From Acidimicrobiaceae bacterium (GTDB lineage: Bacteria > Actinomycetota > Acidimicrobiia > Acidimicrobiales > Bog-793): DNA of 52,692 nucleotides. A program made the position numbers and the translations under genes. The notes under the pieces were generated by a model that had not been told where the DNA came from, did no database searches, and saw only the letters and a list, made by a program, of their open reading frames with translations. The stretch lies in contig PLPK01000048.1 of the NCBI GenBank assembly GCA_003159795.1, positions 1 to 52,692 of the forward strand, given 5' to 3'. The first letter of the stretch is position 1. Each line of letters opens with the position of its first letter. Of this stretch, positions 34,110 to 52,121 are shown in pieces.

Positions 34110-36086
34110 GTGAGCACGGTTCCCCGGTCTGTTGCGGTGCAGTTGGCGACTGGTGGGAGCGGTGTCGTGGATGCGCCCGGTGAGATGGCCTTCAGCGCGC
34201 CGCGCGACCCGGCCGTCTCGGTGATCGTCGTCGCCTGGGGATCCTCGCCGCACCTGTTCGGCTGCTTGGCCTCGATCGCCGCCCAACGCGCGGCCCCGCC
34301 GTTCGAGGTCGTGCTCGTGCTGAACCACGTCGAGCAGAAGGTCGTCGGCGCGGTCGCGAGCCGGGTCCGCGGGGCGACAGTCGTTGCCTCCCGTTCGGAC
34401 CTCGGGTTCGCCGGTTCGGTGAACGCGGGGGTCGGGTCGGCCCGCGCCGCGCTCTTCGCCGTTCTTCACGACGACGTCGAGGTGCCTCCCGACTGGCTGG
34501 AACGGCTCGCCGGTTCGGCAGCGTCGCACCCCGAGGCCGAGATCACCGGCTGCCGGGTCCTCGGGGGCCCGGACGAGTCGGCGACGTCACCGTCCGCCGC
34601 CCCGGGGGCGACGGTCGACGGCCCGGTCGACGTGTCCGATTGCGCCTTCCTCGTTCGGCGCACGGTTTGGGACCGCCTCGGCGGCCTCGACGAGATCTAT
34701 TACCCGTTCGGGTTCGTGACCACCGACCTGTGCGCCCGGGTCGTGGGGAGCGGCGGGCACGTGCGCGTCGAGCGCCGGGCGACGGTGCGCCGGAAGCGCT
34801 CGGGCCGCATGAACGACCGCTTCAAGTCGGTGGTCATGGGCCTCAACGGGGAACTGTTCGCCACCCGCCACGCCGTCGTTCCGGAGACCAGCGCCCCGGC
34901 GGCGCTCGCGCCGTCGGGGGCCCGCGCCCCGCGCCGGGGCGGCGGGGAGTCCCGCCTCCTCGTCATCGACGACGCGGTGCCCGATCCGTCGTTCGGTGCG
35001 GGATCCGGGCGCATGGCGGAGGTGCTGCGCGAGCTGGCGGCGGGCGGCCGCTTCACGATCGACCTCCTGCCGCTCGTCGCGCGCTGCGACGCCGATCCCG
35101 CGCGGGCCGCGGCCCTCGGCGTGGACGTCGTCGAGGGCGACCTCGAGGACCTGGTGGGCCGGGGTGGACGGCGCTACGGGGCGGTCATCGTCTCGCGGCC
35201 GCACAACTGGGTGGCGTCGATCGGGACGCTGCGCCGTCGCGCGCCGGCCGTCCCCGTCGTCTACGACGCGGAGGCGCTGTTCTCGCGCCGTCTCGCGCGA
35301 CAGGCCGCCTACGTCACCGACGCACCGACGGCGATCCGGGTGGCGCACGATGCAGCGCGTCTCGACGCAGTCGAGCGGGAGATCGCCCGCGAGGCGGACT
35401 ACGTCGTCACGATCTGCGAGGACGAGGCGGACTTCTTCCGGGACGGTTCGCCGGACCCGGGCAACGTCGTCGTGCGGCTGCCCTACCTCGCCGGGGTGAG
35501 ACCGTCCCCGGCGCAGCTTGCCGTGCGTCACGACCTGGGTTTCGTCGCAGGATGGTCCGCCGGGCCGGACTCACCGAACGCCGACGCCCTGGAATGGTTC
35601 GCGCGCAAGATCCTGCCGGGGGTGCGCGCCCGGGTGCCCGGGGCGCGTGTGCGGGTGACCGGCATCGACCCGCCGGCGAACGTGCGGCGCCTCGCCACCC
35701 CGGCGGTCGAGTTCGTCGGGCAGGTCGAGAGCCTCCCGGACTTCTACGCCTCGGTGCGCGTCGTTGTCGTCCCCATCCGCTACGGGTCGGGGGTGAAGTT
35801 GAAGACCGTCGAGGCGGTCCAGTTCGGCGTGCCGACCGTGGCGACGCAAGTGGGCGCCGAGGGGATCTCCCTCGACGACCGGGGTGCGATCGTCGTTGTC
35901 GACGATCCCGAACGCTTCGCGCGGGCCGTGGCGGCGCTCCTCGCCGACGACGAAGCCTGGCAGGCGCAGCGCGCGCGGGTACTCGCCCAGCAGGCCCGCT
36001 GGGTGGCGGGGGCGGCGGGCCCCGTCTGGGTCCCGCTCCTCGAACGGCTCACCGGTTCGCCGCCGGCCGGGCGATCAGCGCGGTGA
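34110..36086 (+). CDS. Bimodular glycosyltransferase (GT2 N-terminal + GT4 C-terminal)
   Basis: N: VSVIVVAWGSSPHLFGCLASIAAQ...LGFAGSVNAGVGSARAALFAVLHDDVEVPPDWLERL. C: VVPIRYGSGVKLKTVEAVQFGVPTVATQVGAEGISLDD. Confidence 0.9.
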   Translation: MSTVPRSVAVQLATGGSGVVDAPGEMAFSAPRDPAVSVIVVAWGSSPHLFGCLASIAAQRAAPPFEVVLVLNHVEQKVVGAVASRVRGATVVASRSDLGFAGSVNAGVGSARAALFAVLHDDVEVPPDWLERLAGSAASHPEAEITGCRVLGGPDESATSPSAAPGATVDGPVDVSDCAFLVRRTVWDRLGGLDEIYYPFGFVTTDLCARVVGSGGHVRVERRATVRRKRSGRMNDRFKSVVMGLNGELFATRHAVVPETSAPAALAPSGARAPRRGGGESRLLVIDDAVPDPSFGAGSGRMAEVLRELAAGGRFTIDLLPLVARCDADPARAAALGVDVVEGDLEDLVGRGGRRYGAVIVSRPHNWVASIGTLRRRAPAVPVVYDAEALFSRRLARQAAYVTDAPTAIRVAHDAARLDAVEREIAREADYVVTICEDEADFFRDGSPDPGNVVVRLPYLAGVRPSPAQLAVRHDLGFVAGWSAGPDSPNADALEWFARKILPGVRARVPGARVRVTGIDPPANVRRLATPAVEFVGQVESLPDFYASVRVVVVPIRYGSGVKLKTVEAVQFGVPTVATQVGAEGISLDDRGAIVVVDDPERFARAVAALLADDEAWQAQRARVLAQQARWVAGAAGPVWVPLLERLTGSPPAGRSAR

Positions 36087-36533: not shown

Positions 36534-37295
36534 TTAGCCTGGCTCCGCCCAGAAGCGGCGCAGGAACTCGTCGGTCTCGGCGAGCGAACCGGCCCGGCCG
36601 ATCTCATAGAAGCGCTCCGTCGCCTCGTAGCCAAAGAGGAGGGAGCGCTCGGCGAGCGTGGCGTACAGCTCCGACAACTCGGTCACGCCGGCTCCGGCGA
36701 GGTCGATCGCCGGGGCGGTGAGACCGCCGAGGCCGTAGTCGACCCAGGCCATCTCCGGCGTCGGGTGCACCTTGTTGTAGCGGGTGACCCGGCCGGCCTC
36801 CAGCACTGCGTTCGAGGCGTCCCAGAGGTTCTCGTTGCGCAGCACGGTCATTGCCGCCGGCAGGCCGCTTGCCTCCCAGCGGGCGGCGACATCGGCGTAG
36901 TCGACGCGCAGGAACGTGTCGCCGTACAGGACGAGGAAGCGCCCGCCCAACAGGGCCGACGCCCGGCGGATCGCCCCGAGCGTCCCGTCGAGCCCCGGCG
37001 AGTCGTAGCTGTAGGCGATCTCGACCCCGTGGCAGGAGGGGCCGATCCTCTCCTCGATCATTTCGCCCAGGTAGCCGACGCACAGCACCGCGCGCGAGAC
37101 CCCGTAACCCGCGAGGAGGCGCAACTGGTGGACGAGGAACGGCTGGCCGGCGACCTCGATCAGCCCCTTCGGCTTTTGGCGGGTCGCCTCCCCGAGACGG
37201 GTCCCCCTGCCCCCCGCGAGGACACATACCGTCAGCGGCGCCGGCGCGCCCTTGCCGGTGCCTCCGGTTCTAGCGGTCAGCGTCGTCCCAGCCAT
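36534..37295 (-). CDS. hddC: Sugar-phosphate nucleotidyltransferase, HddC-like (D-glycero-D-manno-heptose-1-P guanylyltransferase candidate)
   Basis: TVCVLAGGRGTRLGEATRQKPKGLIEVAGQPFLVHQLRLLAGYGVSRAVLCVGYLGEMIE...FLVLYGDTFLRVDY; downstream in the heptose operon. Confidence 0.75.
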   Translation of the reverse strand: MAGTTLTARTGGTGKGAPAPLTVCVLAGGRGTRLGEATRQKPKGLIEVAGQPFLVHQLRLLAGYGVSRAVLCVGYLGEMIEERIGPSCHGVEIAYSYDSPGLDGTLGAIRRASALLGGRFLVLYGDTFLRVDYADVAARWEASGLPAAMTVLRNENLWDASNAVLEAGRVTRYNKVHPTPEMAWVDYGLGGLTAPAIDLAGAGVTELSELYATLAERSLLFGYEATERFYEIGRAGSLAETDEFLRRFWAEPG

Positions 37296-38268
37296 AGCGG
37301 GATTCGACGAAGTAGCGCGGGCGGTGGCGCACCTCGTCGTATATCCGCCCGACGTATTCGCCGATGATGCCGAGGGACAGCAGTTGGATGCCGCCGAAGA
37401 AGCAGATGAGGATGACGATCGTCGGGTTGCCGACGGGGAAGTGCACGCCCGCCAGCTTGCACGAGAAGTACGTCGTGCCCAGCAGGAAGGCGAGGCTCGC
37501 CAGCGCGATGCCGATCATCGAAATGAGCTCCAGAGGGTAGCGCGAGAAGCCGATCACGCCGTTGAGGCCGATGAGCACGGAGCCGGTGAAGCGGTTGTAC
37601 TTGCTGCGCCCCTCGACGCGGACCTGCCGGTCGTAGAGCACGCTCGTCTGGCGGAACCCGACGTAGCCGACCAGGCCGCGCAAGAACCCGTGCTGCTCGG
37701 GCAGCGACACGACGGCGTCGACGGCCCGGCGGCTCATCAACCGGAAGTCGCCCGTGTTCGGCGGGATGTCGACGTTGGCAATGCGCCGCAGGAGGCGGTA
37801 TCCGACCGCCGCCACGATCCGCTTCACGAGGGTCTCGCCGGCCCGGGTACGGCGCTGCGCGTAGACGATGTCGTAGCCGTCGCGCCATTTTTCGACAAGC
37901 TCGCCGATGAGCTCGGGAGGGTCCTGCAGGTCGCAGTCGATGACGACGACGGCATCGCCCGACGCCACCTCGAGCCCGGCGATCGTCGCTGTCGGCTGGC
38001 CGAAACGCCGCGAGAAGCGCAGCATCCGGACGCGTGGGTCCCGCTCCCGCAACTCGAGGATGACCTGCTCGGTGCGGTCGGTCGACGGGTCGACGCTGAA
38101 GATGATCTCCCAGTCGCAGTCGAGCCCGTCGAGCGTCGGGGCGAGCCGCGCGTAGATCCCGGGGACATTGTCCTCTTCGTTGTAGGTGGGGATCACGACG
38201 CTCAGCATCTTGCGCTCCGGCGCGGCCGGAGTGATCGCGCGCCCCACTTCCGCCCCGGAGGCGGTCAT
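37270..38268 (-). CDS. GT2 membrane-anchored (polyprenyl-P sugar/DPM1-ArnC-like) glycosyltransferase
   Basis: LSVVIPTYNEEDNVPGIYARL...VVVIDCDLQDPPELIGELVEKWRDGYDIVYAQRRTRAGE...GDFRLMSRRAVDAV; two C-terminal TM helices. ATGA overlap with the SDR gene. Confidence 0.92.
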   Translation of the reverse strand: MTASGAEVGRAITPAAPERKMLSVVIPTYNEEDNVPGIYARLAPTLDGLDCDWEIIFSVDPSTDRTEQVILELRERDPRVRMLRFSRRFGQPTATIAGLEVASGDAVVVIDCDLQDPPELIGELVEKWRDGYDIVYAQRRTRAGETLVKRIVAAVGYRLLRRIANVDIPPNTGDFRLMSRRAVDAVVSLPEQHGFLRGLVGYVGFRQTSVLYDRQVRVEGRSKYNRFTGSVLIGLNGVIGFSRYPLELISMIGIALASLAFLLGTTYFSCKLAGVHFPVGNPTIVILICFFGGIQLLSLGIIGEYVGRIYDEVRHRPRYFVESRYGWDDADR

Positions 38269-39131
38269 CCGTTTTCCTTCTGCACCGTCGAGAAGAACTG
38301 GTCGTCGATCCGCCGCAGTGTCGCGAGGTCGCGCTCGGTCCGCAGGCGTTCGCGGAACGCCTCGTCTTTCCAGGGGTCCCATTGCGCGCTGATGACCCGC
38401 CCCGTGATCCCGGCGGATTCCTCGGAGAGCAGGAAGGCGACGAGCTCGTAGACGAGCTCGGGGGGATCCCCCGAGCCGCGTTCGTGGGCGCTGTGGGTCC
38501 GCTCGAAGAACTGGGAGCCGACGGCGTCGGGACCGGCGGCGAGGATGTTGGCGTGCATCGGCGTGACGATGAAGCCGGGTGCGATCGCGTTGACCCGGAT
38601 GTTGTCGGGCGCGAGCTCGACGGCGAGGTTCTCCGTCAACCGCACCACCGCGGCTTTCGAGGTGGCGTAGCTGTCAAAGCGCGGGAAGGGTGCGGTCGCC
38701 CCGCCACCGGAGAACGTAACCACGGACCCGCCGCCGCGCAGCGGTTCCAGGCATGTCGTCACGGCGAGGAGCGTTCCGGCGACGTTGACGTCGAACGTGC
38801 GCCGGAAGTCGTCGACGCGCCACTCCCCGACCCGGCCGATGGGACCGATGACCGCCGCGGCGGTGACGGCCCCGTCGAGGCGCCCCGTGGGCGCGATTCT
38901 CGGGCGCGCCGCCAGCCAGGCCTGCTCGTCGGTGACGTCGAAGGCGATCGCGTCGTGCGGTCCGCCCGGCAACCCGCCGACCAGGCCGTCGAGGACGGCG
39001 GCGTCGCGGGCCACGAGGGCGAGGCTGGCGCCGAGCTCGGCGAGGGCCGTGGCGACGCCGCGGCCGATGCCCTTGCTGGCGCCCGTCACGAGGATCCGCC
39101 GGCCCGCAAGGTCGTCCATCACGGTCCCCAT
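38265..39131 (-). CDS. Short-chain dehydrogenase/reductase
   Basis: ILVTGASKGIGRGVATALAELGASLALVAR...FDSYATSKAAVVRLTENLAVELAPDNIRVNAIAPGFI. Confidence 0.92.
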   Translation of the reverse strand: MGTVMDDLAGRRILVTGASKGIGRGVATALAELGASLALVARDAAVLDGLVGGLPGGPHDAIAFDVTDEQAWLAARPRIAPTGRLDGAVTAAAVIGPIGRVGEWRVDDFRRTFDVNVAGTLLAVTTCLEPLRGGGSVVTFSGGGATAPFPRFDSYATSKAAVVRLTENLAVELAPDNIRVNAIAPGFIVTPMHANILAAGPDAVGSQFFERTHSAHERGSGDPPELVYELVAFLLSEESAGITGRVISAQWDPWKDEAFRERLRTERDLATLRRIDDQFFSTVQKENG

Positions 39132-39216
39132 ACTGGCCGTTGTCCCGGTGGCGCGCACGGTATGCGCCCTCGAGCCGAGCGCCCGATCATCGGGCGGCGG
39201 GCCGGCCCGCAACTGG

Positions 39217-40221
39217 CTACCGGCGTTGGGCGGCCTCGACGCAGGACCACGCGTAGCGCGCCGAGGCAAGGTCGCCGAGGAGCTCGCGTCCGTCAGCGGC
39301 CTGAATCGCCGCGGTGAAGTGCCGCCACTCGAGATCCCACGAGACGTCGTCATCCGGGTAGCGCTCGGTCTCGACCTCGGGTGGCCCGAGTTCCGGTCGC
39401 ATCCGGAAGATCCGCAGCTCCTGCGGCCCGTAACTGCGCACGAGGCCGTCGACGGCGAGCTTCGCATCGTGGCAGGCGATCTCGAGGGAGAAAGTGTTCT
39501 TCCACTCGGTCCAGCTGACGTGGAAGATGGCGAACGGCGAGGGGTCGCCGACACCCCCCGGCCCCCCGAGGATGATGACGGCGTTGTCGTCGACGGGCGC
39601 CCGCCAGAACTGCGTCCGCAACAGCGCGCTGTGCAGCGGCAGCTCGCCAAGGAGCCAGTAGCTGAGGTCGAGCAGGTGCATGCCCTGGTCAACGATCTCG
39701 CCACCCCCCGAGCGATGCGGGTCGGCCCGCCACTCCCGCTCGTAGCCGAGGCGTCCACCGTGGCCGTACCGGGCCCGCAGGTAGAGGACCTCCCCGTAGC
39801 GGCCGGAGCGGGCCTCGCCGATCGCCCGGGAGATCCCCGGGTGGAAGCGGTGGTTGAACCCGACCTTCACGAGGCGGCCGGCGGCGCGGGCCGCGGCGGC
39901 CACCCGCTCGATCTCGGCGACGCCGATCCCGGCGGGCTTCTCGACGAGGACGTGGGCGCCCGCCTCGAGCGCCCGGCACGAAATCCCGGCCAGCTGGTCG
40001 TGGACGGTCGCGACGATGACGACGTCGGGCCGCAGCGCGAGCACCTCGTCGAGGGTCCCGCACGCCCGGCCCCCGAAATCGGCGGCGAGGCCCGCGGACG
40101 CCGCCGCGACGACGTCGTGGCAGGCGACCAGCGTGTCGGCACCGAGCGCTTCGGCCCGCTTGCGGCCGATGAGCCCGCAGCCGACGATCCCGACCCGCAG
40201 CGGCCGGGGCGGCTCGGGCAT
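39217..40221 (-). CDS. Gfo/Idh/MocA-family oxidoreductase
   Basis: LRVGIVGCGLIGRKRAEAL...VVIVATVHDQLAGISCRALEAGAHVLVEKPAGIGVAEIER...VGFNHRFHPGI...EIVDQGMHLLDLSYWLLGE. Confidence 0.93.
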   Translation of the reverse strand: MPEPPRPLRVGIVGCGLIGRKRAEALGADTLVACHDVVAAASAGLAADFGGRACGTLDEVLALRPDVVIVATVHDQLAGISCRALEAGAHVLVEKPAGIGVAEIERVAAAARAAGRLVKVGFNHRFHPGISRAIGEARSGRYGEVLYLRARYGHGGRLGYEREWRADPHRSGGGEIVDQGMHLLDLSYWLLGELPLHSALLRTQFWRAPVDDNAVIILGGPGGVGDPSPFAIFHVSWTEWKNTFSLEIACHDAKLAVDGLVRSYGPQELRIFRMRPELGPPEVETERYPDDDVSWDLEWRHFTAAIQAADGRELLGDLASARYAWSCVEAAQRR

Positions 40222-41207
40222 CAGTTGTTCTCGGTCGCGTAGGCGCCGCTGCAGTCGAAGTCGAACGTCAGCTCCTGGGCGTTCTCCTCGGCGAGCGCCT
40301 GCCGCGTGTCCTCGGGGTGGGACGAGTACACGAGGAGGAAGCCCCCGCCCCCCGCACCGACGAGCTTGCCGCCGATCGTGCCGGCCTCGCGGGCGACCTC
40401 GTAGAGGTGGTCGATGTGCGCGTTCGCCATACCGGGCGACCGCTTGCGCTTGTTCTCCCAGTGCTCGTGCATCAGGGCCGCGAACCCGTCGAGGTCACCG
40501 CTCTCGAGCATCACGCGGCTCTCGTGGCCGAGCTCCTTCGTGTGGTGGAGGTTCTCGAGCATCTCCGGGTCGTGGCTTCTCGACCGGTTGTCCTGGTCGG
40601 CGAGGATCACCGACGCCGAGCGCGCGTCACCCGTGTAGAAGAGCAGCAGGCGCTCCCGTAGGCGGCGCAGCGTCTCCGTTTCGAGGTCGAGGGGCACGAC
40701 CTCGACGCGGTCGTCCGATAAGAACGTGTAGGCGCAGATCCCGCCGTGCGCCGCGACGTACTGGTCCTGCTTGCCGACCGGCTCACCGAGCACGTCGATC
40801 TCGATGTGGCACGCCGCCTCGGCGAGCGCGTGGGGCGTGATCGAGCGCCGCCGCGCGTGGGCGAGCGCCTTCAGCAGACACACGGCGAACGACCCCGAGG
40901 AGCCCATGCCCGTCCCCGCCGGGACGTCGGCGACGGAGGCGATCTCCAACGGGCTCCCCTGCCAGTGGCGCAGCAGCGCCTCCCGCAGGATCGGGTGCCG
41001 GATCTCCGAGATCTCGTCGACCTCCTCGGACTCGGAGTACTTCATCCGGTAGCGCTTCTGGAAGGCGGCGTGGACGAACATGTGGACGTACTTGTCGATC
41101 GCGCCGGCGACGAGGAACCCACCGAATTCCCTGTAGTACGACGGGAGGTCCGTCCCGCCTCCCCCCAAGGGCAGTCGCAGCGGTGCCCTGCTGTAGACGA
41201 CGCTCAT
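40221..41207 (-). CDS. hddA: GHMP kinase, D-glycero-alpha-D-manno-heptose 7-phosphate kinase
   Basis: YSRAPLRLPLGGGGTDLPSYYREFGGFLVAGAIDKYVHMFVH...VPAGTGMGSSGSFAVCLLKAL...EIDVLGEPVGKQDQYVAAHGG...GGKLVGAGGGGFLLVY. Confidence 0.9.
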   Translation of the reverse strand: MSVVYSRAPLRLPLGGGGTDLPSYYREFGGFLVAGAIDKYVHMFVHAAFQKRYRMKYSESEEVDEISEIRHPILREALLRHWQGSPLEIASVADVPAGTGMGSSGSFAVCLLKALAHARRRSITPHALAEAACHIEIDVLGEPVGKQDQYVAAHGGICAYTFLSDDRVEVVPLDLETETLRRLRERLLLFYTGDARSASVILADQDNRSRSHDPEMLENLHHTKELGHESRVMLESGDLDGFAALMHEHWENKRKRSPGMANAHIDHLYEVAREAGTIGGKLVGAGGGGFLLVYSSHPEDTRQALAEENAQELTFDFDCSGAYATENN

Positions 41208-42217
41208 CTCGAGGACCCCCTCTGTTCTTGGTACCTGGTTCCCTGGTCGCGCCAGGCGTACTCGTTGTCGTCGAGCCAGTCGAGCGTGTGCCCGATCGCC
41301 TGCGCGATCGTCACCCGCGGTGACCAGCCGAGGCTGCGGATCCGGCTCGTGTCGAGGTGGATCAACGGCGAGTCGCCGATCCAGCCACGGATCCCCCCGG
41401 AATGCTCGATCTCGGGCGCCACGCCGAGATGGGAGGTGATGATCCTGACCGACTCGTCGACGAGGATCGTCTCGTTTGTACCGAGGTTGTAGACGAAGCA
41501 GCCGCTCTCGCCGGCGTGCCGGTCGACGCAGGCGAGCATCGCGTCAACGCAGTCGACGACGTACAGGTACGACTTTGTCTGCTTCCCGTCGCCGAGGATC
41601 CCGAGGTGGGTGGGATCGCGTTTCAGCTGCCGGTAGAAGTCGACGACGTGTCCGTGCGTGTAGCGCTCACCGAGGATCGAGACGAAACGGCAGACGACGC
41701 CCGTCATCCCGAAGCCCGTCGAGTACGCCTCGATGAGTCCCTCACAGGCGAGCTTCGAGGCGCCGTAGAACGAGGTCTGCTGCGGGAAGGGCGCGTCCTC
41801 CGGCGTCGGGAAGACCTCCGGCTCGCCGTAGACGGAGCCGGTCGACGAGAACAGGATCTGCCGCACCCCGGTCGCCCGCATCACCTCGAGGACGCCCGAC
41901 GTCGAGAGCGTGTTCTGTTCGAGGTCCAGTCTTGGGTGCTCGGTCCCGTGGCGGACGTCGGCGTTCGCCTGGAGATGGAAGACCCAGTCGCAGCCGGTGA
42001 AGGCCTGCTCGAGGACGCCCGGGTCGAGCACGTCCCCCTCGACGAGGCTGAAACGCGGATGGTCACGTAGCGAGGCGAGGAACTCGTGTCTGCCGGTGCG
42101 GAAGTCGTCGACGACCACGACCTCGGCGCCGGCGGCGATGAGCCGGTCCGCCAGGTTGCTGCCGATGAAGCCAGCCCCGCCCGTGATGCAGGCGCGGGCG
42201 ACGGCGAGCGGGCTCAC
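41204..42217 (-). CDS. NAD-dependent sugar epimerase/dehydratase
   Basis: ACITGGAGFIGSNLADRLIAAGAEVVVVDDF...FSSTGSVYGE...QTSFYGASKLACEGLIEAY. Confidence 0.92.
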   Translation of the reverse strand: MSPLAVARACITGGAGFIGSNLADRLIAAGAEVVVVDDFRTGRHEFLASLRDHPRFSLVEGDVLDPGVLEQAFTGCDWVFHLQANADVRHGTEHPRLDLEQNTLSTSGVLEVMRATGVRQILFSSTGSVYGEPEVFPTPEDAPFPQQTSFYGASKLACEGLIEAYSTGFGMTGVVCRFVSILGERYTHGHVVDFYRQLKRDPTHLGILGDGKQTKSYLYVVDCVDAMLACVDRHAGESGCFVYNLGTNETILVDESVRIITSHLGVAPEIEHSGGIRGWIGDSPLIHLDTSRIRSLGWSPRVTIAQAIGHTLDWLDDNEYAWRDQGTRYQEQRGSSR

Positions 42218-42284
42218 CCGGGCATCTTCCGTGAAGCAGGGCCCGTCCAGCCGATGGCGCGCGGTCGCCCGGTGCGGGACACGG

Positions 42285-42995
42285 CTAAAGCGAGTAGCCG
42301 GCGGCTGTCGCGTCCCGGAAGAACATCTGGACGGTCTCGAGCGAGAACTGCGAGAGGTCCTTGCCGAGGCAGTCGAGCTTGCGGAGCAGGTCTGGCGTCA
42401 TCGTGATGATGTGGCAGCCGGCGCTGTTCGCCTGGACGAGGTTCAGCACCTCACGCGGCGAAGCCCAGATGCACTCGGCGGCCGGCGCCGCGGCCATGAT
42501 CTCGACGGCGCGACGTACGAGGGGGACGGGATCGACACCGGCGTCGGCAATCCGTCCGGCGAAGATCGAAAGATAGGAGGGCGCGCCGCCGGCCACCGCG
42601 GCGGTGGCCGCCTCGACCTGTTCGAGCAAGCACATCGCGGTGACGTTGACCTTCACCCCGTCGTGGGAGAGGTCGCGCACGAGCTCGGTCATCGGCTCGC
42701 CCGCCGTCGTCGTCACCGGGATCTTCACGTAGACGTTCTCGCCCCACGAGGCGATGAGCCTCGCCTGGCGGCGCATCTCCTCGCGTTCGTCGGCGAACAC
42801 CTCGAAAGAGACGGGATGCGTCGTGACGTGGCCGAGGAGTTCGGCGGCGAACTCCGCGTAGTCCGTCACACCTGCCTGGCGCATCAGCGTCGGGTTCGTC
42901 GTGAATCCCGAGATTCGCGGGTCGCGAGCGAGCTCCAGAATGGCCGGCAGGCTGGCGCCGTCGGCGAAGATCCGCGTCGTGATCTTGTCCAGCAC
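42285..42995 (-). CDS. Transaldolase/fructose-6-phosphate-aldolase-family protein
   Basis: KITTRIFADGASLPAILELARDPRISGFTTNPTLMRQAG...ENVYVKIPVTTTAGEP (Schiff-base Lys)...VKVNVTAMCLLEQVEAATAA...SIFAGRIADAGVDP. Confidence 0.9.
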   Translation of the reverse strand: MLDKITTRIFADGASLPAILELARDPRISGFTTNPTLMRQAGVTDYAEFAAELLGHVTTHPVSFEVFADEREEMRRQARLIASWGENVYVKIPVTTTAGEPMTELVRDLSHDGVKVNVTAMCLLEQVEAATAAVAGGAPSYLSIFAGRIADAGVDPVPLVRRAVEIMAAAPAAECIWASPREVLNLVQANSAGCHIITMTPDLLRKLDCLGKDLSQFSLETVQMFFRDATAAGYSL

Positions 42996-43006
42996 CGCGG
43001 TCGATG

Positions 43007-43597
43007 CTAGCAGTCGGCACCTCCGCTGAGCAGGACCGTTACTGCCTGCGCGAGGTCCGGCGCGCGCCGATCCGGCGTCACGAGTGCCGTTCTCTTGTGC
43101 GCACTTCGCGCCACTTCGATGAGGAACGTCCGGCAGCCGGCCGCCTTCCCGGCCTGCACGTCGGAATCGGTGTCGCCGATCATCCAGGAGCTCGCGAGGT
43201 CGATGTCGAGGTCGCGCGCGGCATCGAGCAGCAGGCCGGGTGCCGGCTTGCGGCAGTCACAGGCCCTTCCGAGTTCCGGGTCGGTCCCCTCGGGGTGGTG
43301 CAGGCAGATCCGCCAGCTGTCGAGCACGACGCCGTCGGCGGCGAGCAGGGCGACGACGCGGGCCTGCACGGCCTCGACCACGGCGAGGGGGACGGTCCTT
43401 TTTGCCGCGGCCGGTTGGTTCGTGACGCCGACGAGCAGGTACCCGGCCCGGGCGAGCTGCCCCGCGGCCGCGGCCACCCCGGGCACGAGCGCGACGTCCT
43501 CCGGGTGCAGGGGCGACTCGAACGTCCCCGTCGACGGGTCCGGGACGAGCTCGGTGAGCACACCGTCCCGGTCGAGGAACACAGCTGGGCGGGTCAC
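43007..43597 (-). CDS. gmhB: HAD phosphatase, D-glycero-D-manno-heptose 1,7-bisphosphate phosphatase
   Basis: AVFLDRDGVLTELVPDPSTG...GVTNQPAAAKRTV...CLHHPEGTDPELGRACDCRKPAPGLLLDAARDLDIDLASSWMIGDTDSDVQAGKAAGC (GmhB zinc-site pattern). Confidence 0.92.
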   Translation of the reverse strand: MTRPAVFLDRDGVLTELVPDPSTGTFESPLHPEDVALVPGVAAAAGQLARAGYLLVGVTNQPAAAKRTVPLAVVEAVQARVVALLAADGVVLDSWRICLHHPEGTDPELGRACDCRKPAPGLLLDAARDLDIDLASSWMIGDTDSDVQAGKAAGCRTFLIEVARSAHKRTALVTPDRRAPDLAQAVTVLLSGGADC

Positions 43598-44250
43598 GAC
43601 GCCGCCGGCCTCTGGGCGATGACGGTCACCAGCACCGGGAGGACGATCGGGTCGTCGCCGGGGTCGACCCCGGACAGCTCGGCGAGATACGAGGCCACGG
43701 GACCGGGCCCCGCGCCGGCCGGGGCCACGGCCCACGCCGAGACGAGGGCGCAACCGCTGGCGGCGGGGAACGCGGGCAGCGAGGCGCCGATGTCGGGGTG
43801 CCGGGCGTCGGGCATCGACAAGGGCGCGCCACCGACGCGGCCGGCGGTCGTGATCGGCTCCTGGGCGACGATGAAACCACCGGGGCGGGTCGCCGCCACC
43901 ATCCGCCGCCACACCGCGAAGGGCTCGGCGACGTGCATGAGGAGGAAACGGCACCAGGCGAGGTCGACCTGGACGGGCAGGGCAAACTCCTCCGCGGACT
44001 GGACGAGCGGGACGAGCTGGGGCGTACCGGTCTCGCGCGCCACCGCGGCGAGCTCGTCACCGGTATCCGGCGAGTGGTCGACCGCCCAGACGCGACCGGC
44101 GGGGCCGACGAGCGCGGCGAGCGCCAACGACACGCTGCCCGTGCCGGTCCCGATGTCGGCGCAGCGCCAGTCGGGCCCGACCGGGATGCGCGCGAGCGCG
44201 TCGACGAGGGCAGCGCGGTAGGGGTCGGCGTCGAACGGTGGAGTCGCCAT
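43594..44250 (-). CDS. Class I SAM-dependent methyltransferase
   Basis: WRCADIGTGTGSVSLALAALVGPAGRVWAVDHSPD...VDLAWCRFLLMHVAEPFAVWRRMVAATRPGGFIVAQEP. Confidence 0.9.
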   Translation of the reverse strand: MATPPFDADPYRAALVDALARIPVGPDWRCADIGTGTGSVSLALAALVGPAGRVWAVDHSPDTGDELAAVARETGTPQLVPLVQSAEEFALPVQVDLAWCRFLLMHVAEPFAVWRRMVAATRPGGFIVAQEPITTAGRVGGAPLSMPDARHPDIGASLPAFPAASGCALVSAWAVAPAGAGPGPVASYLAELSGVDPGDDPIVLPVLVTVIAQRPAAS

Positions 44251-44344
44251 CCACGGTCCAACTTACCGGTGCGCCCCGCGCGCCCTCGGCCAGTCGGGGG
44301 GGAGTCTTCGCGGACGTCACCGACGAGCCGCTACGGTAAGCGCG

Positions 44345-44770
44345 ATGCGGGTGACCCTGCTCCTGTGCGACGCGGCCCAGGTCGCCGACGGCAAGCTCTA
44401 CGTCCTCGGTGGCGGGTGGAGCCTCATCGGGCCGGATCCGACGCCCTCGGCCGTGGCGATGAAGATCGACGTCGACTGGACCGAGGTCGACCGGACCCAC
44501 CACTGGGAGCTGTTCCTCGTCGACGAGGATGGGCAGGCGGTCGTGGCCGAGACGCCGGACGGGCCACAGCCGATCGAGGTGCGGGGGGATTTCGAGGTGT
44601 CCCGGCCCGAGTCCGTCCCCGAGGGCAGCCCGGTCGATGTCGCCCTCGCGCTGAACTTCGGTCCGCTGCCGATCGCCCCGTCCTCGCGCTACAACTGGCG
44701 GCTCTCGATCGACGGTGAGACGCAGGAGGACTGGGTGTTGCCGTTCTCCACCCGCGCGCCTCGCGATTGA
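44345..44770 (+). CDS. DUF6941-like hypothetical protein
   Basis: MRVTLLLCDAAQVADGKLYVLGGGWSLIGPDPTPSAVAMKIDVDW...YNWRLSIDGE; family recalled, not searched. Confidence 0.75.
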   Translation: MRVTLLLCDAAQVADGKLYVLGGGWSLIGPDPTPSAVAMKIDVDWTEVDRTHHWELFLVDEDGQAVVAETPDGPQPIEVRGDFEVSRPESVPEGSPVDVALALNFGPLPIAPSSRYNWRLSIDGETQEDWVLPFSTRAPRD

Positions 44771-45699
44771 CTTCGCCTGATCGCACCGCTCCACCCGTCG
44801 CGGCCGGGGCTTCTCCGGTCCAGGGCCTGGTCGACCCGATCCGCCGGTGGTGGGCGGGGGCCCGCGTCGCCCGGGACGGGCTGCCATGGCGGGCGACGCG
44901 CGACCCGTGGGCGGTGCTTGTCGCCGAGACGATGCTCGCCCAGACCCAGGTCGCCAGGGTCGCGCCGCGCTACCGCGAGTTCGTCGCGCGCTTCCCCACG
45001 CCGGCGTCATGCGCCGTCGCACCGGTGGGGGAGGTGGTCCGCGCTTGGGTCGGCCTCGGTTACAACCGTCGAGCTCTCGCCCTGCACTCGGCCGCCGAGA
45101 CGATCGTCGCCCGCCACGGCGGACGCGTCCCGGCCGCCCTCGCCGATCTTCTCGGCCTCGCGGGGGTGGGCCCGTATACGGCGCGCGCCGTGCTGGCATT
45201 CGCCTTCGACGCGGAGGCCGCTGTGGTCGACACGAACGTCGGACGGGTGCTCGCCCGCGCCGCGGCGGGCCGGAGGTTGCGACCCAGGGAGGCCCAGGCG
45301 CTGGCGGACGGCCATGTCCCGCCGGGGTCGGCCCGTGAGTGGAACCTCGCGCTGATGGACTTCGGCAGCGTCGTCTGCGCGTCGCGCGACCCGGCGTGCG
45401 GCACGTGCCCGGTGCGTGCCGCCGGTGCCTGCGCCTGGCGCTCGGGCCGGGAGGGTGTTCCCGACCCCGCCGTCGGTTCCGCGCGGGTGACCGCCCGCCA
45501 GGCTCCGTTCGAGGGGTCGGACCGGCAGGGTCGCGGTCGACTCGTGCGTGCCGCCTGTGCCGGGCCGATCCCGGCGGCGGACGTCGCCCGGATCGCCGGC
45601 TGGCCGTCGCACGCCGCCCGCGCCCGCCGGGTCGCGGAGACGCTCGTCGCCGAGGGGATCCTCGTCGCGGGAGCGGCGGGGGAGCTGTCGCTCGCCTGA
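44767..45699 (+). CDS. mutY: A/G-specific adenine glycosylase (MutY-like, HhH-GPD + Fe-S)
   Basis: AETMLAQTQVARVAPRYREF, LLGLAGVGPYTARAVLAFAF, VVDTNVGRVLAR, WNLALMDFGSVVCASRDPACGTCPVRAAGAC; no complete Nudix-like C-terminal domain. Confidence 0.9.
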   Translation: MTSPDRTAPPVAAGASPVQGLVDPIRRWWAGARVARDGLPWRATRDPWAVLVAETMLAQTQVARVAPRYREFVARFPTPASCAVAPVGEVVRAWVGLGYNRRALALHSAAETIVARHGGRVPAALADLLGLAGVGPYTARAVLAFAFDAEAAVVDTNVGRVLARAAAGRRLRPREAQALADGHVPPGSAREWNLALMDFGSVVCASRDPACGTCPVRAAGACAWRSGREGVPDPAVGSARVTARQAPFEGSDRQGRGRLVRAACAGPIPAADVARIAGWPSHAARARRVAETLVAEGILVAGAAGELSLA

Positions 45700-45783
45700 G
45701 CGTTTCAGCGGCCCGGGTCGCCGGTGCGTACCGAACGGCGTCAGAGTTTCTTGCGTAACGTCATGGGACTGGTTGGGGAAAGG

Positions 45784-46338
45784 ATGTCTGTGGCCGAGAT
45801 CGCTGAGTCGAAGATCATCCGTGATGTCATCCACGTCGCACCGGACGTCCACGGTGACGATCGCGGCCGGTTCATCGAGACCTACCGCCGGTCCTGGTTC
45901 CCTCTCGGGCGCGAGATGGTGCAGGCCAACCGGTCGGACAAGGCCCAGGGAGCGGTCGTCGGTCTCCACTACCACCTGCACCAGGCCGACTACTGGTACT
46001 CGACTCGTGGCCGGTCGCGCGTCGTGCTGTACGACCTGAGGATCGGGTCTGCGACACAAGGGGCGCTCGAGCTCATCGATCTCGGCGCGGACGATCGCGG
46101 GGTGTTCATCCCGCCCGGCGTCGCGCACGGTTTCGCCTCGTTGACGGACATGACGCTCATCTACCTCGTCGACTCGTACTACAACGAGCAAGACGAGCTG
46201 GGTGTGGCCTGGGACGACCCCGACATCGCCGCCGACTGGGGGGTGACGGACCCGGTGCTCTCGGTTCGTGACCGGAGCAACCCACGTATTTCGCAGATCC
46301 CGGAGGCGCTCATGCCGCGGACCGGGATGCGGACGTGA
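45784..46338 (+). CDS. rmlC: RmlC-like dTDP-4-dehydrorhamnose 3,5-epimerase family cupin
   Basis: HGDDRGRFIETYRRSWFPLGREMVQANRSDKAQGAVVGLHYHLHQADYWYSTRGRSRVVLYDLRIGS...GVFIPPGVAHGFASLTDMTLIYLVDSYYNEQDELGVAWDDPDI. Confidence 0.85.
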   Translation: MSVAEIAESKIIRDVIHVAPDVHGDDRGRFIETYRRSWFPLGREMVQANRSDKAQGAVVGLHYHLHQADYWYSTRGRSRVVLYDLRIGSATQGALELIDLGADDRGVFIPPGVAHGFASLTDMTLIYLVDSYYNEQDELGVAWDDPDIAADWGVTDPVLSVRDRSNPRISQIPEALMPRTGMRT

Positions 46339-46419
46339 ACATTCGATAGCCGCGATGCGTCTTCCCGGGAGGCGCGCTTGAATGGTGCACGTGTTCGATG
46401 ATGCTGGGAGTCGTGCGCC

Positions 46420-47424
46420 TTGATCGCGGGCATCGTTATCGGCGCGCTCGTGCTCGTCGCGGGCTTCGCGACCTGGTCCAGTCACTCGCGGGCCAGGACC
46501 GAGCGGCGTTCGGTCACGACCCACCAGCGCGCGCTCGACGTGCTCGGGACCGTCTCCCGGCGCTGGGAGGGCGTCGCTCCGGTGCGCGCCCCGAAGCCCG
46601 ACGAGGTCGCGCGGACACACGTCCAACCGACGGGTGAGACGCCGAGAGCGCGGCACGAGGGCGACGAACTCTTGCCGAACCGCCGCGCGGGGGTACGCCT
46701 CGTCCCCCCGTCGGGGCCGACACCCGTCAGGCTCCCGATGTTCGTCGACGAGGGTCTCGCCCCGACGGGCGTCCCCGGCGAGTCGGGGCCCGACGAATCC
46801 GCGACCGGGGCCGTCGCCGGCCCGCCAAGTCGGCGTGGACGGGCGGCCCTTTTCGACCACGAATCGCTCAGCCCGGGCGCCGAGGTGGCGGCTCGCTCGT
46901 CCCGTCGCGCCCGCCACCGCTACCGGGGCGGCCGATCCGCCCGACGCGCCACCTCCGTCGCCGCGACGGTCGTCGCCCTCGCCGCGATCGGCGTCGCGGG
47001 CTGGCAGCTGGCGTCGGGGAGCACACCGACGCACCACGCAAACAAGACGGCTCCGTCGGGGTCGAAGGGCAAGAAGCACCACCACCCCGGTGGTCACAAG
47101 CCGGCGCAGGACGTCGTGCCGACCTCGGTCACGGCGAGCGTCGTCACGTACCAGACCTCGAGCCGGACCTACACGCTCACGTTCTCGACTTCGGGTACGT
47201 GCTGGCTCGGCGTGCAGCAGGGGGTGAACGGCAAGTACCTCTGGATGACCACGCTCTCGGCGGGAGGGAAGGCCTCGTACAAGGCGAGCGGGTCGATCGC
47301 GGTCCGGCTCGGTGCGCCGCCGTACCTGAAGGTGCAGCTGAACGGGGTCAACGTCGAGCTGCCCGTCAAGAACGTCCAGCCGTACGACATCACCTTCTCA
47401 CCCCCGCGCGACAGCACCGCCTGA
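46420..47424 (+). CDS. Bitopic membrane protein with RodZ C-terminal (DUF4115)-like domain
   Basis: TTG start; N-terminal TM IAGIVIGALVLVAGFATW and second TM ATVVALAAIGVAGWQLA; C-terminal SGTCWLGVQQGVNGKYLWMTTLSAGGKASYKASGSIAVRLGAPPYLKVQLNGVNVELPVKNVQPYDITF. Confidence 0.65.
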   Translation: MIAGIVIGALVLVAGFATWSSHSRARTERRSVTTHQRALDVLGTVSRRWEGVAPVRAPKPDEVARTHVQPTGETPRARHEGDELLPNRRAGVRLVPPSGPTPVRLPMFVDEGLAPTGVPGESGPDESATGAVAGPPSRRGRAALFDHESLSPGAEVAARSSRRARHRYRGGRSARRATSVAATVVALAAIGVAGWQLASGSTPTHHANKTAPSGSKGKKHHHPGGHKPAQDVVPTSVTASVVTYQTSSRTYTLTFSTSGTCWLGVQQGVNGKYLWMTTLSAGGKASYKASGSIAVRLGAPPYLKVQLNGVNVELPVKNVQPYDITFSPPRDSTA

Positions 47425-47474
47425 TCCCGCGCCGGGCGGCGGCGCGGCGTGCGTCTGCGCCGACATCTCCCAGG

Positions 47475-48527
47475 TCAGGCAGCGGCGAAGTGCCGCGCCA
47501 CCGCGGCGAATGCCTCCTTGGGCTCCCAGGGCATGTCCGGGTAGGTCGTCCCGTGGTGCCCGTGGGGCAGCGACTTCACGAGGGACATCGAGTCCATGTC
47601 GAGGTCGTAGCGAGGATTGTCGTCGGTGTGGGCCTCGGGTGTCACAAAGGTCGACACCAGGGCGCCAGCCACTCCTGAGCGTTCGAGTTCGTCGAGGGTT
47701 TCGGCGAGCTCGCGGGCCTGCATGGCTTCGTCACGCTCGAACGTCCCCTTCAGGCGGGTCCGGATGAAACGCCCGATCACCGGTCGCGTGTGGAGCCACA
47801 GCCGGGTGGTGTCGGTGACCCCGAACCCCAGGGCGCCCGAGCTCTCGGCACCACCGTAGGTGCGCATCCCGAACTCGGTGACGATCACCGGCTTGCCCGT
47901 TGACAGGAACGGTTCGAGCATCTCGATGTAGCGGTCCTTGGTCCGCGCCTCGCGGTAGTGATCGACTCCCACGTAGTCGAAAGGCCCCCAGTCCACCGGC
48001 TCGAAGACGAGCGAGCCGTAGGTGAGCGGGCCCTCGAATACGGCGCGCAGTCTGGGCACCAGCGCGGCCAGGAACGCATCGAGCTTCCCGTTGCCGAGCA
48101 GCGCCCAGTCTCCCTTGAGGTGTTGCAGGCGCTCGGTCACGCTCTTGCCGGGGACCAGCCCCGGCGTGAAGAGCGTAAGTTCGCCGCCGGCGACGAAGAT
48201 CACGCGGCCGGGGTGGGCCGCCGCCAGCGGTGCTGCCGCCTCGGCTGCTGCGACCAGTCGGGACGTGGTCTCCTCCGGCGAGTACTCGATGAAGGCCGGG
48301 CAGAACCACACCTCGAGTCCGAGTCTGAGCGCGATCTCGGCGACGGCCGTGATCCGTCCCACGGCACTACCCCCGATGCGCACGGCGTTGGCGTGCAGGT
48401 CGTCCCGGATGATCTCAAGTTCGCGCCGCACCAATGACAGGTCGAGTGCCTTCGGACGTGTCGAGATGGCATATCCAGGGCCCCGGAACACAGTGCCCGT
48501 GTCGTAGTGGACTCCCTGGTGCTGCAT
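47475..48527 (-). CDS. TIM-barrel glycoside-hydrolase-like protein
   Basis: LEVWFCPAFIEYSPEETTSRL...VIFVAGGELTLFTPG...FDYVGVDHYREARTKDRYIEMLEPFLSTGKPVIVTEFGMRTYGGAE; candidate acid/base and nucleophile Glu in GGELTLF and VTEFG. Confidence 0.65.
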   Translation of the reverse strand: MQHQGVHYDTGTVFRGPGYAISTRPKALDLSLVRRELEIIRDDLHANAVRIGGSAVGRITAVAEIALRLGLEVWFCPAFIEYSPEETTSRLVAAAEAAAPLAAAHPGRVIFVAGGELTLFTPGLVPGKSVTERLQHLKGDWALLGNGKLDAFLAALVPRLRAVFEGPLTYGSLVFEPVDWGPFDYVGVDHYREARTKDRYIEMLEPFLSTGKPVIVTEFGMRTYGGAESSGALGFGVTDTTRLWLHTRPVIGRFIRTRLKGTFERDEAMQARELAETLDELERSGVAGALVSTFVTPEAHTDDNPRYDLDMDSMSLVKSLPHGHHGTTYPDMPWEPKEAFAAVARHFAAA

Positions 48528-49127
48528 CTCGCCTGGATCCTCGCGCGTACCCGCCTAGGCCATGTGGATGACGTCGCAGTGATCCGCCGGAATCGCCCGA
48601 TCGTTCCCCACTCGGCGTCGGGTGCAGTCGTCCGCGGAGGCCACCTTTTCCGAACGGTAGGGTGCCCAGATCGGGCCGATCCAGGACGGATAACAGTCGC
48701 GAGCAGCGGTTCCCCTGAAACGCCATCCGGAGGCGCTGGTCATCACGCCGGTGGCCGCCAGATAGCTACGGACGTAATGACTTACGTCGACGACTTGCGA
48801 TGCCAGCGTTCCCATCGAGGCGTCCCACTTTGACGTCGTCATATCCAAATGGGGCCCGAGTTGAACCGGCGTCACGGCTCTGAGGGAAGCCGAACCGGAA
48901 GCGAGGATCGCCCTGGACGTTGACGGTCTCTTCCTGACCGACCAGCGCTTCGAGTGAGCGCCCGAGCCGGGTCTGACTTCATCGTGAACCGGCTGACGTC
49001 TCTTCGGACTGTCCCGAGGACGAGCCGCCGGCCCGGCGGTCTGGGCACTTCGCGGTCGTGGCTCTGCTTACGTTCGGGAAGACCTCTGGTGTCCGAAAGG
49101 GTGGGTCGATATCAGCCGGAGAGACCT

Positions 49128-49544
49128 TCAGCCCTTTGGTAGTAGCTCCACAACCGGAATCAGGCGCTCCGTCTTTTGCTGGTATTCGGCGAAGCCCGGG
49201 TAACGCCGGCCCTGTTCTTCGTAGATGCGGTCACGATCCTCACCGCTGACCGGCAACGCGTGCGCCGCATAGGTGTCGGTGCCGACTTCCACGGTCACGT
49301 CTGGGTGCGCAACCAGGTTGTGGTACCAGTCCGGGTGCGTGTCGGCTCCAGCCTTGGAGGCGAAGACGTACCGGTGCCCGTCGAGGTCCAAGAACATCAT
49401 CGGGTTGACCCGCTCTTGACCGGTCCTTGCTCCAGTCGTGTGCAGCAGGAGCACAGGGGCTCCCTCGAACTGGCCGCCGACGCGGCCCTCGTTGGCATGG
49501 AATTCTTCGATTATCTTCCGGTTCCAGTCCTGGACGTCGCTCAT
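49128..49544 (-). CDS. Deazaflavin (F420)-dependent nitroreductase, Ddn family
   Basis: WNRKIIEEFHANEGRVGGQFEGAPVLLLHTTGARTGQERVNPMMFLDLDGHRYVFASKAGADTHPDWYHNLVAHPDVTVEVG. Confidence 0.94.
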   Translation of the reverse strand: MSDVQDWNRKIIEEFHANEGRVGGQFEGAPVLLLHTTGARTGQERVNPMMFLDLDGHRYVFASKAGADTHPDWYHNLVAHPDVTVEVGTDTYAAHALPVSGEDRDRIYEEQGRRYPGFAEYQQKTERLIPVVELLPKG

Positions 49545-49678
49545 CGTTGACCTCGACTATTCGGGCAGCATGTTGTTGGGTCGAGCGTATCCTCGACGTG
49601 CCGTACTGCCCCACCTTCCCGGCGATCCGGGGCGATCTCCGCGCCAATCCGGGCGAGCGAGATGGGACGCACGTCGAA

Positions 49679-49987
49679 TCAACCGGGGACCTGCTGCATC
49701 ATCACTCCCCGGGTCGTGTTCGGAGCGCCCGCCCGCAGCTGGATCTCGACCAGGAACGAACTGGCCGTGATTTCCTGCACCACGAACCCGCCCGAGGTGG
49801 CCGCCGCGCTGGCGTTGGTGGTGCAGTTCCCGACGGCTGGACTGTTCGTCCCGAGCGTTTCCTCGTAGCCGCCGCCCGGGACGGTACTCGTGGTCGGTGG
49901 GAGCGGAACCGGCGTGGTCGTGGACGTTGACGTTGTCTTCGCGTTGAGGCTCATCGAACGGGCCGACACGAAGGTCAGGCTGGCCAC
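49679..49987 (-). CDS. Small exported/hypothetical protein, start uncertain
   Basis: ASLTFVSARSMSLNAKTTSTSTTTPVPLPPTTSTVPGGGYEE...GGFVVQEITASSFLVEIQLRAGAPNTT; hydrophobic N-terminus and Thr/Pro linker. Confidence 0.4.
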   Translation of the reverse strand: MASLTFVSARSMSLNAKTTSTSTTTPVPLPPTTSTVPGGGYEETLGTNSPAVGNCTTNASAAATSGGFVVQEITASSFLVEIQLRAGAPNTTRGVMMQQVPG

Positions 49988-50081
49988 CAGTACCGAGGCG
50001 GCCGGGACTGCTGACAGGTCGCGCTGGAGGCTGCGTGGGGCTTCCCGCAGACCCTGCGGTAGTTCTGTTCCCGGAATCCAG

Positions 50082-50681
50082 TCAGCGACCTACCGATTCC
50101 CACTTTGTCGAGGCGCGGGCGAGCTTGGGATGACTGACCAGCAGGTGCCAGATGACTGCACACAGACCCTCGGTGTGCGGCGTGACGTGGTCATCGAAGA
50201 GGGGGGGGATCACGACACAGGCGTTCGCGACCTTGGCGGTGTACCCGCCGTCGCGGCCGACGACGCCGAAGATGGCGCTTCCTCTTTCCCTGGCGAGTTC
50301 GAGCGCGGCGACGAGGTTCGCAGAGACGCCGCGTTCGGCGTCGCCCCCCCCGACGCTGAAGACGAGCACGGCGTCGTCCGAGGAGAGCCGCGATCCCTTG
50401 AGCCACTCCGAGAACGTCGAGCTCCACCCGTCGTCGTTGACACGGGCGGTGAGCTCGGAGACGTTGTCGACCGGAGTGTAGGACTCAACGTCACAGATCT
50501 TCCGGAAGTCGTTGACGGCGTGGGAGGCGTGCCCCGCCGAGCCGCCCACGCCGAGGATGAACAGTCGTCCATCGCGTTCCCGCACCTCGGCGATGCCGGC
50601 CGCGCAGCGCTCGACGGATTCCGGGTCTATCGCGCCGAGCACACGAGTCGACTCGGCGATGTAGCTCTCGCTGAACGACAT
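50082..50681 (-). CDS. gmhA: SIS-domain phosphosugar isomerase, GmhA-like (sedoheptulose-7-phosphate isomerase candidate)
   Basis: GRLFILGVGGSAGHASHAVNDFRKICDVESYTPVDN...DDAVLVFSVGGGDAERGVSANLVAALELARERGSAIFGVVGRDGGYTAKVANACVVIP. Confidence 0.82.
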   Translation of the reverse strand: MSFSESYIAESTRVLGAIDPESVERCAAGIAEVRERDGRLFILGVGGSAGHASHAVNDFRKICDVESYTPVDNVSELTARVNDDGWSSTFSEWLKGSRLSSDDAVLVFSVGGGDAERGVSANLVAALELARERGSAIFGVVGRDGGYTAKVANACVVIPPLFDDHVTPHTEGLCAVIWHLLVSHPKLARASTKWESVGR

Positions 50682-51521: not shown

Positions 51522-51596
51522 TATCTCCAGGTCTTCCTTCCTCTCAGCTCAGCGCGCGAACACGTGCTTCCCCTCTACCTGTCCGCCACGAACACC

Positions 51597-52109: not shown

Positions 52110-52121
52110 TGTTCGTCCCCC

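What the first reader, a model, noticed from the sequence alone, without database searches (positions are those of the whole stretch)
36534..50681. Apparently complete GDP-D-glycero-alpha-D-manno-heptose pathway in a Gram-positive-type actinobacterial genome
Sequence: an HddA-like GHMP kinase (40221-41207), GmhB-like HAD phosphatase (43007-43597) and HddC-like nucleotidyltransferase (36534-37295) lie in one minus-strand run, with a GmhA-like SIS isomerase at 50082-50681. Established: GmhA-HddA-GmhB-HddC convert sedoheptulose-7-P to GDP-D,D-heptose in bacterial S-layer and capsule pathways. Inference: this high-GC organism builds a heptose-bearing surface glycan or secondary metabolite, with no LPS genes seen in the window.
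Basis: partly seen in the sequence, partly recalled or inferred. Interest (0 to 1): 0.75.

Follow-up and report, generated by a model that had tools for sequence, protein, structure and literature searches.

The report
Likely GDP-octose, not heptose, cassette
A gene run that looks like a seven-carbon-sugar pathway more likely makes an activated eight-carbon sugar, by steps known so far from the antibiotic lincomycin, and close relatives of the run occur unrecognised in many bacterial phyla.

Summary
HddA-, GmhB- and HddC-like genes lie in a nine-gene minus-strand run (36534-44250); a GmhA-like gene lies 5.8 kb away.

Transaldolase + isomerase + kinase + phosphatase + NTP-transferase is the LmbR/N/P/K/O set that makes GDP-octose in lincomycin synthesis. 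Seven window genes match LmbR, N, P, K, O, M and Z (29-41%). The isomerase groups with LmbN, away from GmhA (97/89), and shares LmbN's longer phosphate loop; sister cassettes share LmbL's Cys-to-Thr change. In an isomerase-first survey of 397 actinobacterial genomes, loop-type isomerases had a transaldolase in the same run (one copy is cut by a contig end); GmhA-type ones did not.

The five-gene core sits in 39 of the best 80 loci, across about nine phyla. Octose is not proven: the kinase scores higher against HddA-type WcbL than LmbP, the transaldolase is far from LmbR, and no enzyme was assayed. Best reading: GDP-octose for a lipid-linked surface glycan (0.72); rival: GDP-heptose (0.2).

The parts
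43594..44250 (-). class I SAM-dependent methyltransferase, first gene of the run
   Evidence: Pfam PF13649 47 bits; a 56% homologue stands at the same place in the Acidimicrobiaceae locus L012 only
43007..43597 (-). HAD-IIIA phosphatase (GmhB/LmbK-like; proposed octose-bisphosphate 8-phosphatase)
   Evidence: NCBIfam GmhB 108 bits, below cut-off 178; BLASTP LmbK 39%/99 bits, E. coli GmhB 38%/99 bits; lacks the GYVH motif; zinc-site Cys/His kept
42285..42995 (-). dedicated transaldolase (proposed octulose 8-phosphate synthase, LmbR role)
   Evidence: TIGR02134 310.7 bits, above cut-off 281.95; housekeeping transaldolase on contig C29; LmbR 29%
41204..42217 (-). GalE-type NAD-dependent epimerase (LmbM-like)
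   Evidence: Pfam Epimerase 152 bits; LmbM 41% over 307 aa; archaeal GalE 3ehe 249 bits by phmmer
40221..41207 (-). GHMP kinase (HddA/LmbP-like; proposed octose 8-phosphate 1-kinase)
   Evidence: tree
39217..40221 (-). Gfo/Idh/MocA oxidoreductase (LmbZ-like)
   Evidence: Pfam; LmbZ 37%/164 bits against 69 bits for the best solved structure
38265..39119 (-). short-chain dehydrogenase/reductase; start inferred
   Evidence: Pfam adh_short_C2 147 bits for the ORF 38265-39758; recurs in sister cassettes
37270..38268 (-). GT2 glycosyltransferase of the PgfS/ArnC polyprenyl-phosphate type with two C-terminal hydrophobic segments; start inferred from overlap with the SDR stop
   Evidence: NCBIfam PgfS 257 bits, ArnC-type 151 bits, both below cut-off; hydropathy
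36534..37295 (-). sugar-1-phosphate nucleotidyltransferase (HddC/LmbO-like)
   Evidence: Pfam 50 bits; LmbO 37%/98 bits; best solved structure 61 bits
50082..50681 (-). SIS isomerase (LmbN-like; proposed octulose 8-phosphate isomerase)
   Evidence: LmbN 32%/79 bits, E. coli GmhA 47 bits; long phosphate loop; tree
34110..36086 (+). glycosyltransferase with a GT2 and a GT1 domain, convergent with the run; possible user of the sugar
   Evidence: Pfam Glycos_transf_2 and Glyco_trans_1_4; link to the pathway is inference

Best explanation
The run encodes a GDP-octose pathway that works like the first half of lincomycin sugar synthesis. Proposed steps, all inferred from homology: (1) the dedicated transaldolase moves a three-carbon unit from fructose 6-P or sedoheptulose 7-P to ribose 5-P, giving octulose 8-P; (2) the SIS protein isomerises it to octose 8-P; (3) the GHMP kinase phosphorylates C1; (4) the phosphatase removes the 8-phosphate; (5) the nucleotidyltransferase makes GDP-octose. 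The LmbM-like epimerase, LmbZ-like oxidoreductase and SDR then tailor the GDP-sugar, the methyltransferase may methylate it, and the two-helix GT2 passes the octose to a polyprenyl phosphate for a surface glycan. The window lacks LmbL and LmbS counterparts, so its sugar should not be the amino-octose of lincomycin.
For: Gene set: seven window genes match LmbR, N, P, K, O, M and Z at 29-41% in the cluster found in G701; published functions of LmbR, N, K and O (PMC4351081); LmbR makes octulose from ribose 5-P (PMC5854111). Dedicated transaldolase: a separate housekeeping one exists. Isomerase: cassette SIS and LmbN share a phosphate loop about six residues longer than GmhA's and lie on one side of the tree, 97/89. 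Test in the other direction: seven of 397 actinobacterial genomes gave isomerase hits; the five with loop-type isomerases have a transaldolase in the same run (one further copy is cut by a contig end), the two with GmhA-type loops do not. Swap: the same cassette uses an LmbR-like transaldolase (37-39%) in L136, L137, L103 and L174. Sister cassettes have an LmbL-like enzyme with the same catalytic Cys-to-Thr change as LmbL, unlike canonical enzymes. Phosphatase: LmbK lies among 46 cassette phosphatases, 93/91; VRDGRPYPP in LmbK, VRDGKPYPP in many cassettes, GYVH in E. coli GmhB. Cassette kinases form a clade (100/93) apart from solved HddA-type kinases.
Against: The kinase scores higher against HddA-type WcbL (165 bits) than LmbP (122), and LmbP is a separate long branch. 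The transaldolase is far from LmbR (29%) and nearer to transaldolases of unrelated contexts (44% in Staphylococcus). The window's own phosphatase subgroup does not carry the LmbK-like loop and is not placed with LmbK. The epimerase is closer to an archaeal GalE. The window genome has no LmbL (only a canonical enzyme). No enzyme has been assayed. G701 is taken as S. lincolnensis from its length (10,319,054 bp, from memory) and its cluster content; its genes are named Lmb by order and family.
Confidence: 0.72

Rival explanations
1. GDP-D-glycero-alpha-D-manno-heptose pathway. The transaldolase only supplies sedoheptulose 7-P from erythrose 4-P, and the other four enzymes act on C7 sugars.
For: HddA is the best NCBIfam model for the kinase; kinase nearer WcbL than LmbP; the transaldolase family includes enzymes annotated as ordinary transaldolases.
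Against: Isomerase groups with LmbN away from GmhA; all four genes score well below curated heptose cut-offs; a housekeeping transaldolase already exists; the HddA-like loci outside the cassette clade carry no transaldolase; LmbZ-like gene, and LmbL-type enzymes in sister cassettes.
Confidence: 0.2
2. The set makes a GDP-octose or other higher sugar for a secreted small molecule (secondary metabolite) rather than for a surface glycan.
For: The only characterised relatives make an antibiotic; a methyltransferase heads the run.
Against: PgfS/ArnC-type GT2 in the run, another glycosyltransferase next to it, no NRPS or other lincosamide condensation gene among the Pfam-scanned window ORFs; plasmid and other loci lie among glycosyltransferases.
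Confidence: 0.15

Closest known systems
Lincomycin/celesticetin GDP-lincosamide pathway (LmbR, N, P, K, O, M, L, Z, S)
   Same: Counterparts of seven of nine enzymes; isomerase loop shared; LmbL-type Cys-to-Thr enzymes in sister cassettes
   Different: No LmbL or LmbS in the window; an extra SDR, methyltransferase and polyprenyl-type GT2; LmbP on a separate branch; transaldolase of another subfamily; no antibiotic genes seen
GDP-D-glycero-alpha-D-manno-heptose pathway (GmhA, HddA, GmhB, HddC)
   Same: Same four enzyme families and same logic of isomerase, 1-kinase, phosphatase, guanylyltransferase
   Different: Dedicated transaldolase; isomerase loop and phosphatase motif differ; kinase in a different clade; all below curated heptose cut-offs

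Membership tests
Lincosamide-type GDP-octose pathway | dedicated transaldolase with the sugar genes, beside a housekeeping one | tested here: met
Lincosamide-type GDP-octose pathway | isomerase of LmbN kind (long phosphate loop, LmbN side of the tree) | tested here: met
Lincosamide-type GDP-octose pathway | phosphatase of LmbK kind | tested here: inconclusive
   LmbK groups with 46 sister phosphatases, but the window is in another subgroup
Lincosamide-type GDP-octose pathway | kinase grouping with LmbP | tested here: not met
   LmbP on a separate long branch
Lincosamide-type GDP-octose pathway | LmbL (Thr-for-Cys) and LmbS for the amino-octose | tested here: not met
   no LmbL in the window genome and no LmbS-like family among the scanned window ORFs; LmbL-type present in sister cassettes
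GDP-heptose pathway | isomerase with the GmhA phosphate loop, on the GmhA side of the tree | tested here: not met
GDP-heptose pathway | kinase within the HddA/WcbL clade | tested here: not met
   cassette clade separate, 100/93; clade with the solved HddA-type kinases 100/99
GDP-heptose pathway | scores above curated HddA, GmhB, HddC and GmhA cut-offs | tested here: not met
Either pathway | enzyme substrates and product (C7 or C8, GDP) | not testable with these tools
   needs an enzyme assay

The most novel reading that the evidence does not exclude
A lincomycin-like GDP-octose pathway is a widespread, unrecognised part of bacterial surface-glycan synthesis, present in about nine phyla or more, hidden because its genes are annotated as heptose or galactose enzymes; lincosamide producers took their sugar from it or share its ancestry.
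Probability: 0.5. Interest if true: 0.8.

Novelty: new variant of a known kind. Interest (0 to 1): 0.62.

Why it matters
Linear eight-carbon aldoses activated as GDP-sugars are known to me only from lincosamide antibiotics, and the open-access papers searched name no such route for surface glycans. If true, a new sugar building block is spread over many phyla and hundreds of genomes carry the wrong sugar in their annotation. It also makes the origin of the lincomycin sugar testable and gives isolates (Solirubrobacter phytolaccae, Nocardioides pocheonensis) in which to look.

Tried and rejected
Looked for open papers linking transaldolase with hddA, or octose with polysaccharide and transaldolase: none on this; the octoses of the LPS search are the branched kind (paulomycin paper), a different route. 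Considered the kinase tree as proof of lincosamide kinship: it is not, LmbP stands apart. Considered the epimerase as LmbM-specific: rejected, an archaeal GalE scores higher. Transaldolases without the cassette (L101, L102, L089, Lactobacillaceae with PTS genes, Treponema) show that this transaldolase alone does not mean octose. No structure was predicted, because a fold would not tell C7 from C8.

Full report
Observation. The minus-strand run is longer than stated: methyltransferase (43594-44250), phosphatase (43007-43597), transaldolase (42285-42995), GalE-type epimerase (41204-42217), GHMP kinase (40221-41207), Gfo/Idh oxidoreductase (39217-40221), SDR (38265-39119), GT2 with two C-terminal hydrophobic segments (37270-38268) and nucleotidyltransferase (36534-37295). 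The SIS gene stands apart at 50082-50681. The genome is a draft of 2.08 Mb in 86 contigs, about 95% complete, in the same phylum as Streptomyces; its nearest kinase relative is from an Acidimicrobiaceae bin, so it may be acidimicrobial (inference).

The missing gene. The transaldolase (TIGR02134, 310.7 bits over a cut-off of 281.95) is a second, dedicated one: the housekeeping enzyme is on another contig. GDP-heptose synthesis, as I know it, draws sedoheptulose 7-P from the central pool and needs no dedicated transaldolase. Lincomycin synthesis does: LmbR (transaldolase), LmbN (C8 isomerase), LmbK (C8 phosphatase) and LmbO (C8 guanylyltransferase) are demonstrated, and LmbP (kinase), LmbM, LmbL, LmbZ and LmbS predicted, in one source (PMC4351081); a later review says LmbM, LmbL, CcbZ and CcbS convert GDP-octose to GDP-lincosamide (PMC12945683). 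LmbR joins a C3 unit from fructose 6-P or sedoheptulose 7-P to ribose 5-P (PMC5854111).

Direct comparison. A Streptomyces genome (G701, one contig of 10,319,054 bases, the length I remember for S. lincolnensis) holds such a cluster. Window proteins against it by BLASTP: GFO-LmbZ 37%/164 bits, EPI-LmbM 41%/209, KIN-LmbP 36%/122, phosphatase-LmbK 39%/99, NT-LmbO 37%/98, TAL-LmbR 29%/84, SIS-LmbN 32%/79. The same method gives SIS against E. coli GmhA (partial sequence) 47 bits, phosphatase against E. coli GmhB 99 bits and kinase against WcbL 165 bits. By phmmer, a related but different measure, the best solved structures give 61 bits for the nucleotidyltransferase, 69 for the oxidoreductase and 249 for the epimerase. 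So isomerase, nucleotidyltransferase and oxidoreductase lean to lincomycin, the phosphatase is even, and kinase and epimerase lean elsewhere.

Spread. Of the best 80 loci, 39 hold all five core genes, 20 of these also the LmbZ-like gene and 11 an LmbL-like gene. By record titles they cover Actinomycetota, Acidobacteriota, Chloroflexota, Pseudomonadota, Eremiobacterota, Dormibacterota, SAR324, Parcubacteria and Margulisbacteria. Most are metagenome bins, so single assignments may be wrong, but Solirubrobacter phytolaccae and Nocardioides pocheonensis are isolates, and plasmids of Rhizobium jaguaris and Lawsonia intracellularis carry it too.

Fingerprints. (a) SIS: GmhA structures and SIS genes of kinase loci without transaldolase read STSGNS or similar; every cassette SIS aligned, the window's included, reads SVGGG-four or five residues-[VIT]S or close to it, and LmbN reads SVHGG-four or five residues-VS, a loop about six residues longer. 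In a tree LmbN and the cassette isomerases form one side, 97/89, against GmhA; some long branches make the finer placement unsure. (b) Reverse test: the loci above were fetched by transaldolase, so 397 actinobacterial genomes were searched with the isomerase. Seven hit; the five with the long loop (G000, G093, G190, G334, G193) have a transaldolase in the same gene neighbourhood, while a second G334 copy is cut off by its contig end; the two with the GmhA-type loop (G062, G245) have none. (c) LmbL: in LmbL and its cassette relatives the catalytic cysteine of UDP-glucose dehydrogenases (GFGGSC) is threonine (FSGATL, FAGGTL); canonical enzymes in the same alignment keep it, and a third group has asparagine. 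The window's genome lacks this gene. (d) Phosphatase: LmbK VRDGRPYPP and many cassettes VRDGKPYPP replace the E. coli DHGYVH; LmbK falls among 46 cassette phosphatases, 93/91. The window belongs to another cassette subgroup with PDPSTGTFESP, unresolved. (e) Kinase: 53 cassette kinases are one clade (100/93); three structurally solved HddA-type kinases sit in another (100/99); LmbP is a third, long branch.

Swap. In L136, L137, L103 and L174 the cassette carries a transaldolase closer to LmbR (37-39%) than to the window's (29-35%). Two transaldolase subfamilies filling one slot suggests that both deliver the same product.

Mechanism. Shown: gene content, order, kinship and motifs. Inferred: every catalytic step. 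My reading is octulose 8-P, octose 8-P, octose 1,8-bisphosphate, octose 1-P, GDP-octose, then tailoring by epimerase, oxidoreductase and SDR, transfer to polyprenyl phosphate by the GT2, and use in a surface glycan. The SDR may stand in for the LmbS aminotransferase by reducing a keto sugar; that is speculation.

Verdict. The set works like the lincosamide GDP-octose route but fails two membership tests (kinase, LmbL/LmbS), so it is filed as a new variant, not as a lincosamide cluster. GDP-heptose stays possible at about 0.2. The assays named under next steps would settle it.

Noticed in passing
L098, L099, L100 (Streptomyces genomes G500, G592, G470): Clusters with LmbR-, S-, O-, P-, Z-, N-, M-, L- and K-like genes; in L098, whose ORFs were compared with the lincomycin cluster, only these and one further gene matched, so they may make an unknown octose-containing metabolite.
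   Followed up: partly
L097 (Streptomyces genome G513): Cluster matching many lincomycin genes at about 40-70%, so probably celesticetin or another lincosamide.
   Followed up: partly
L105 (Lawsonia intracellularis plasmid 3) 5514-22063: The complete core cassette with epimerase, LmbL-type, SDR and LmbZ-like genes on a plasmid; the kinase is annotated as galactokinase.
   Followed up: partly
L051, L087, L088: UDP-glucose-dehydrogenase-family proteins near transaldolase loci with asparagine in place of the catalytic cysteine (GGNLERD), a third state beside Cys and Thr.
   Followed up: no
L162 and L163 (Ligilactobacillus acidipiscis and Lactobacillus crispatus plasmids): TIGR02134-like transaldolase beside a LacI regulator and mannose-family PTS genes, without sugar-nucleotide genes.
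   Followed up: no
window 45724-46338 (+): Reads like a dTDP-4-dehydrorhamnose 3,5-epimerase (RmlC), judged by eye only; not searched.
   Followed up: no
window 50904-52691 (-): Three ORFs beside the SIS gene without Pfam match; two have a hydrophobic N-terminal segment, so they may be secreted or membrane proteins.
   Followed up: no
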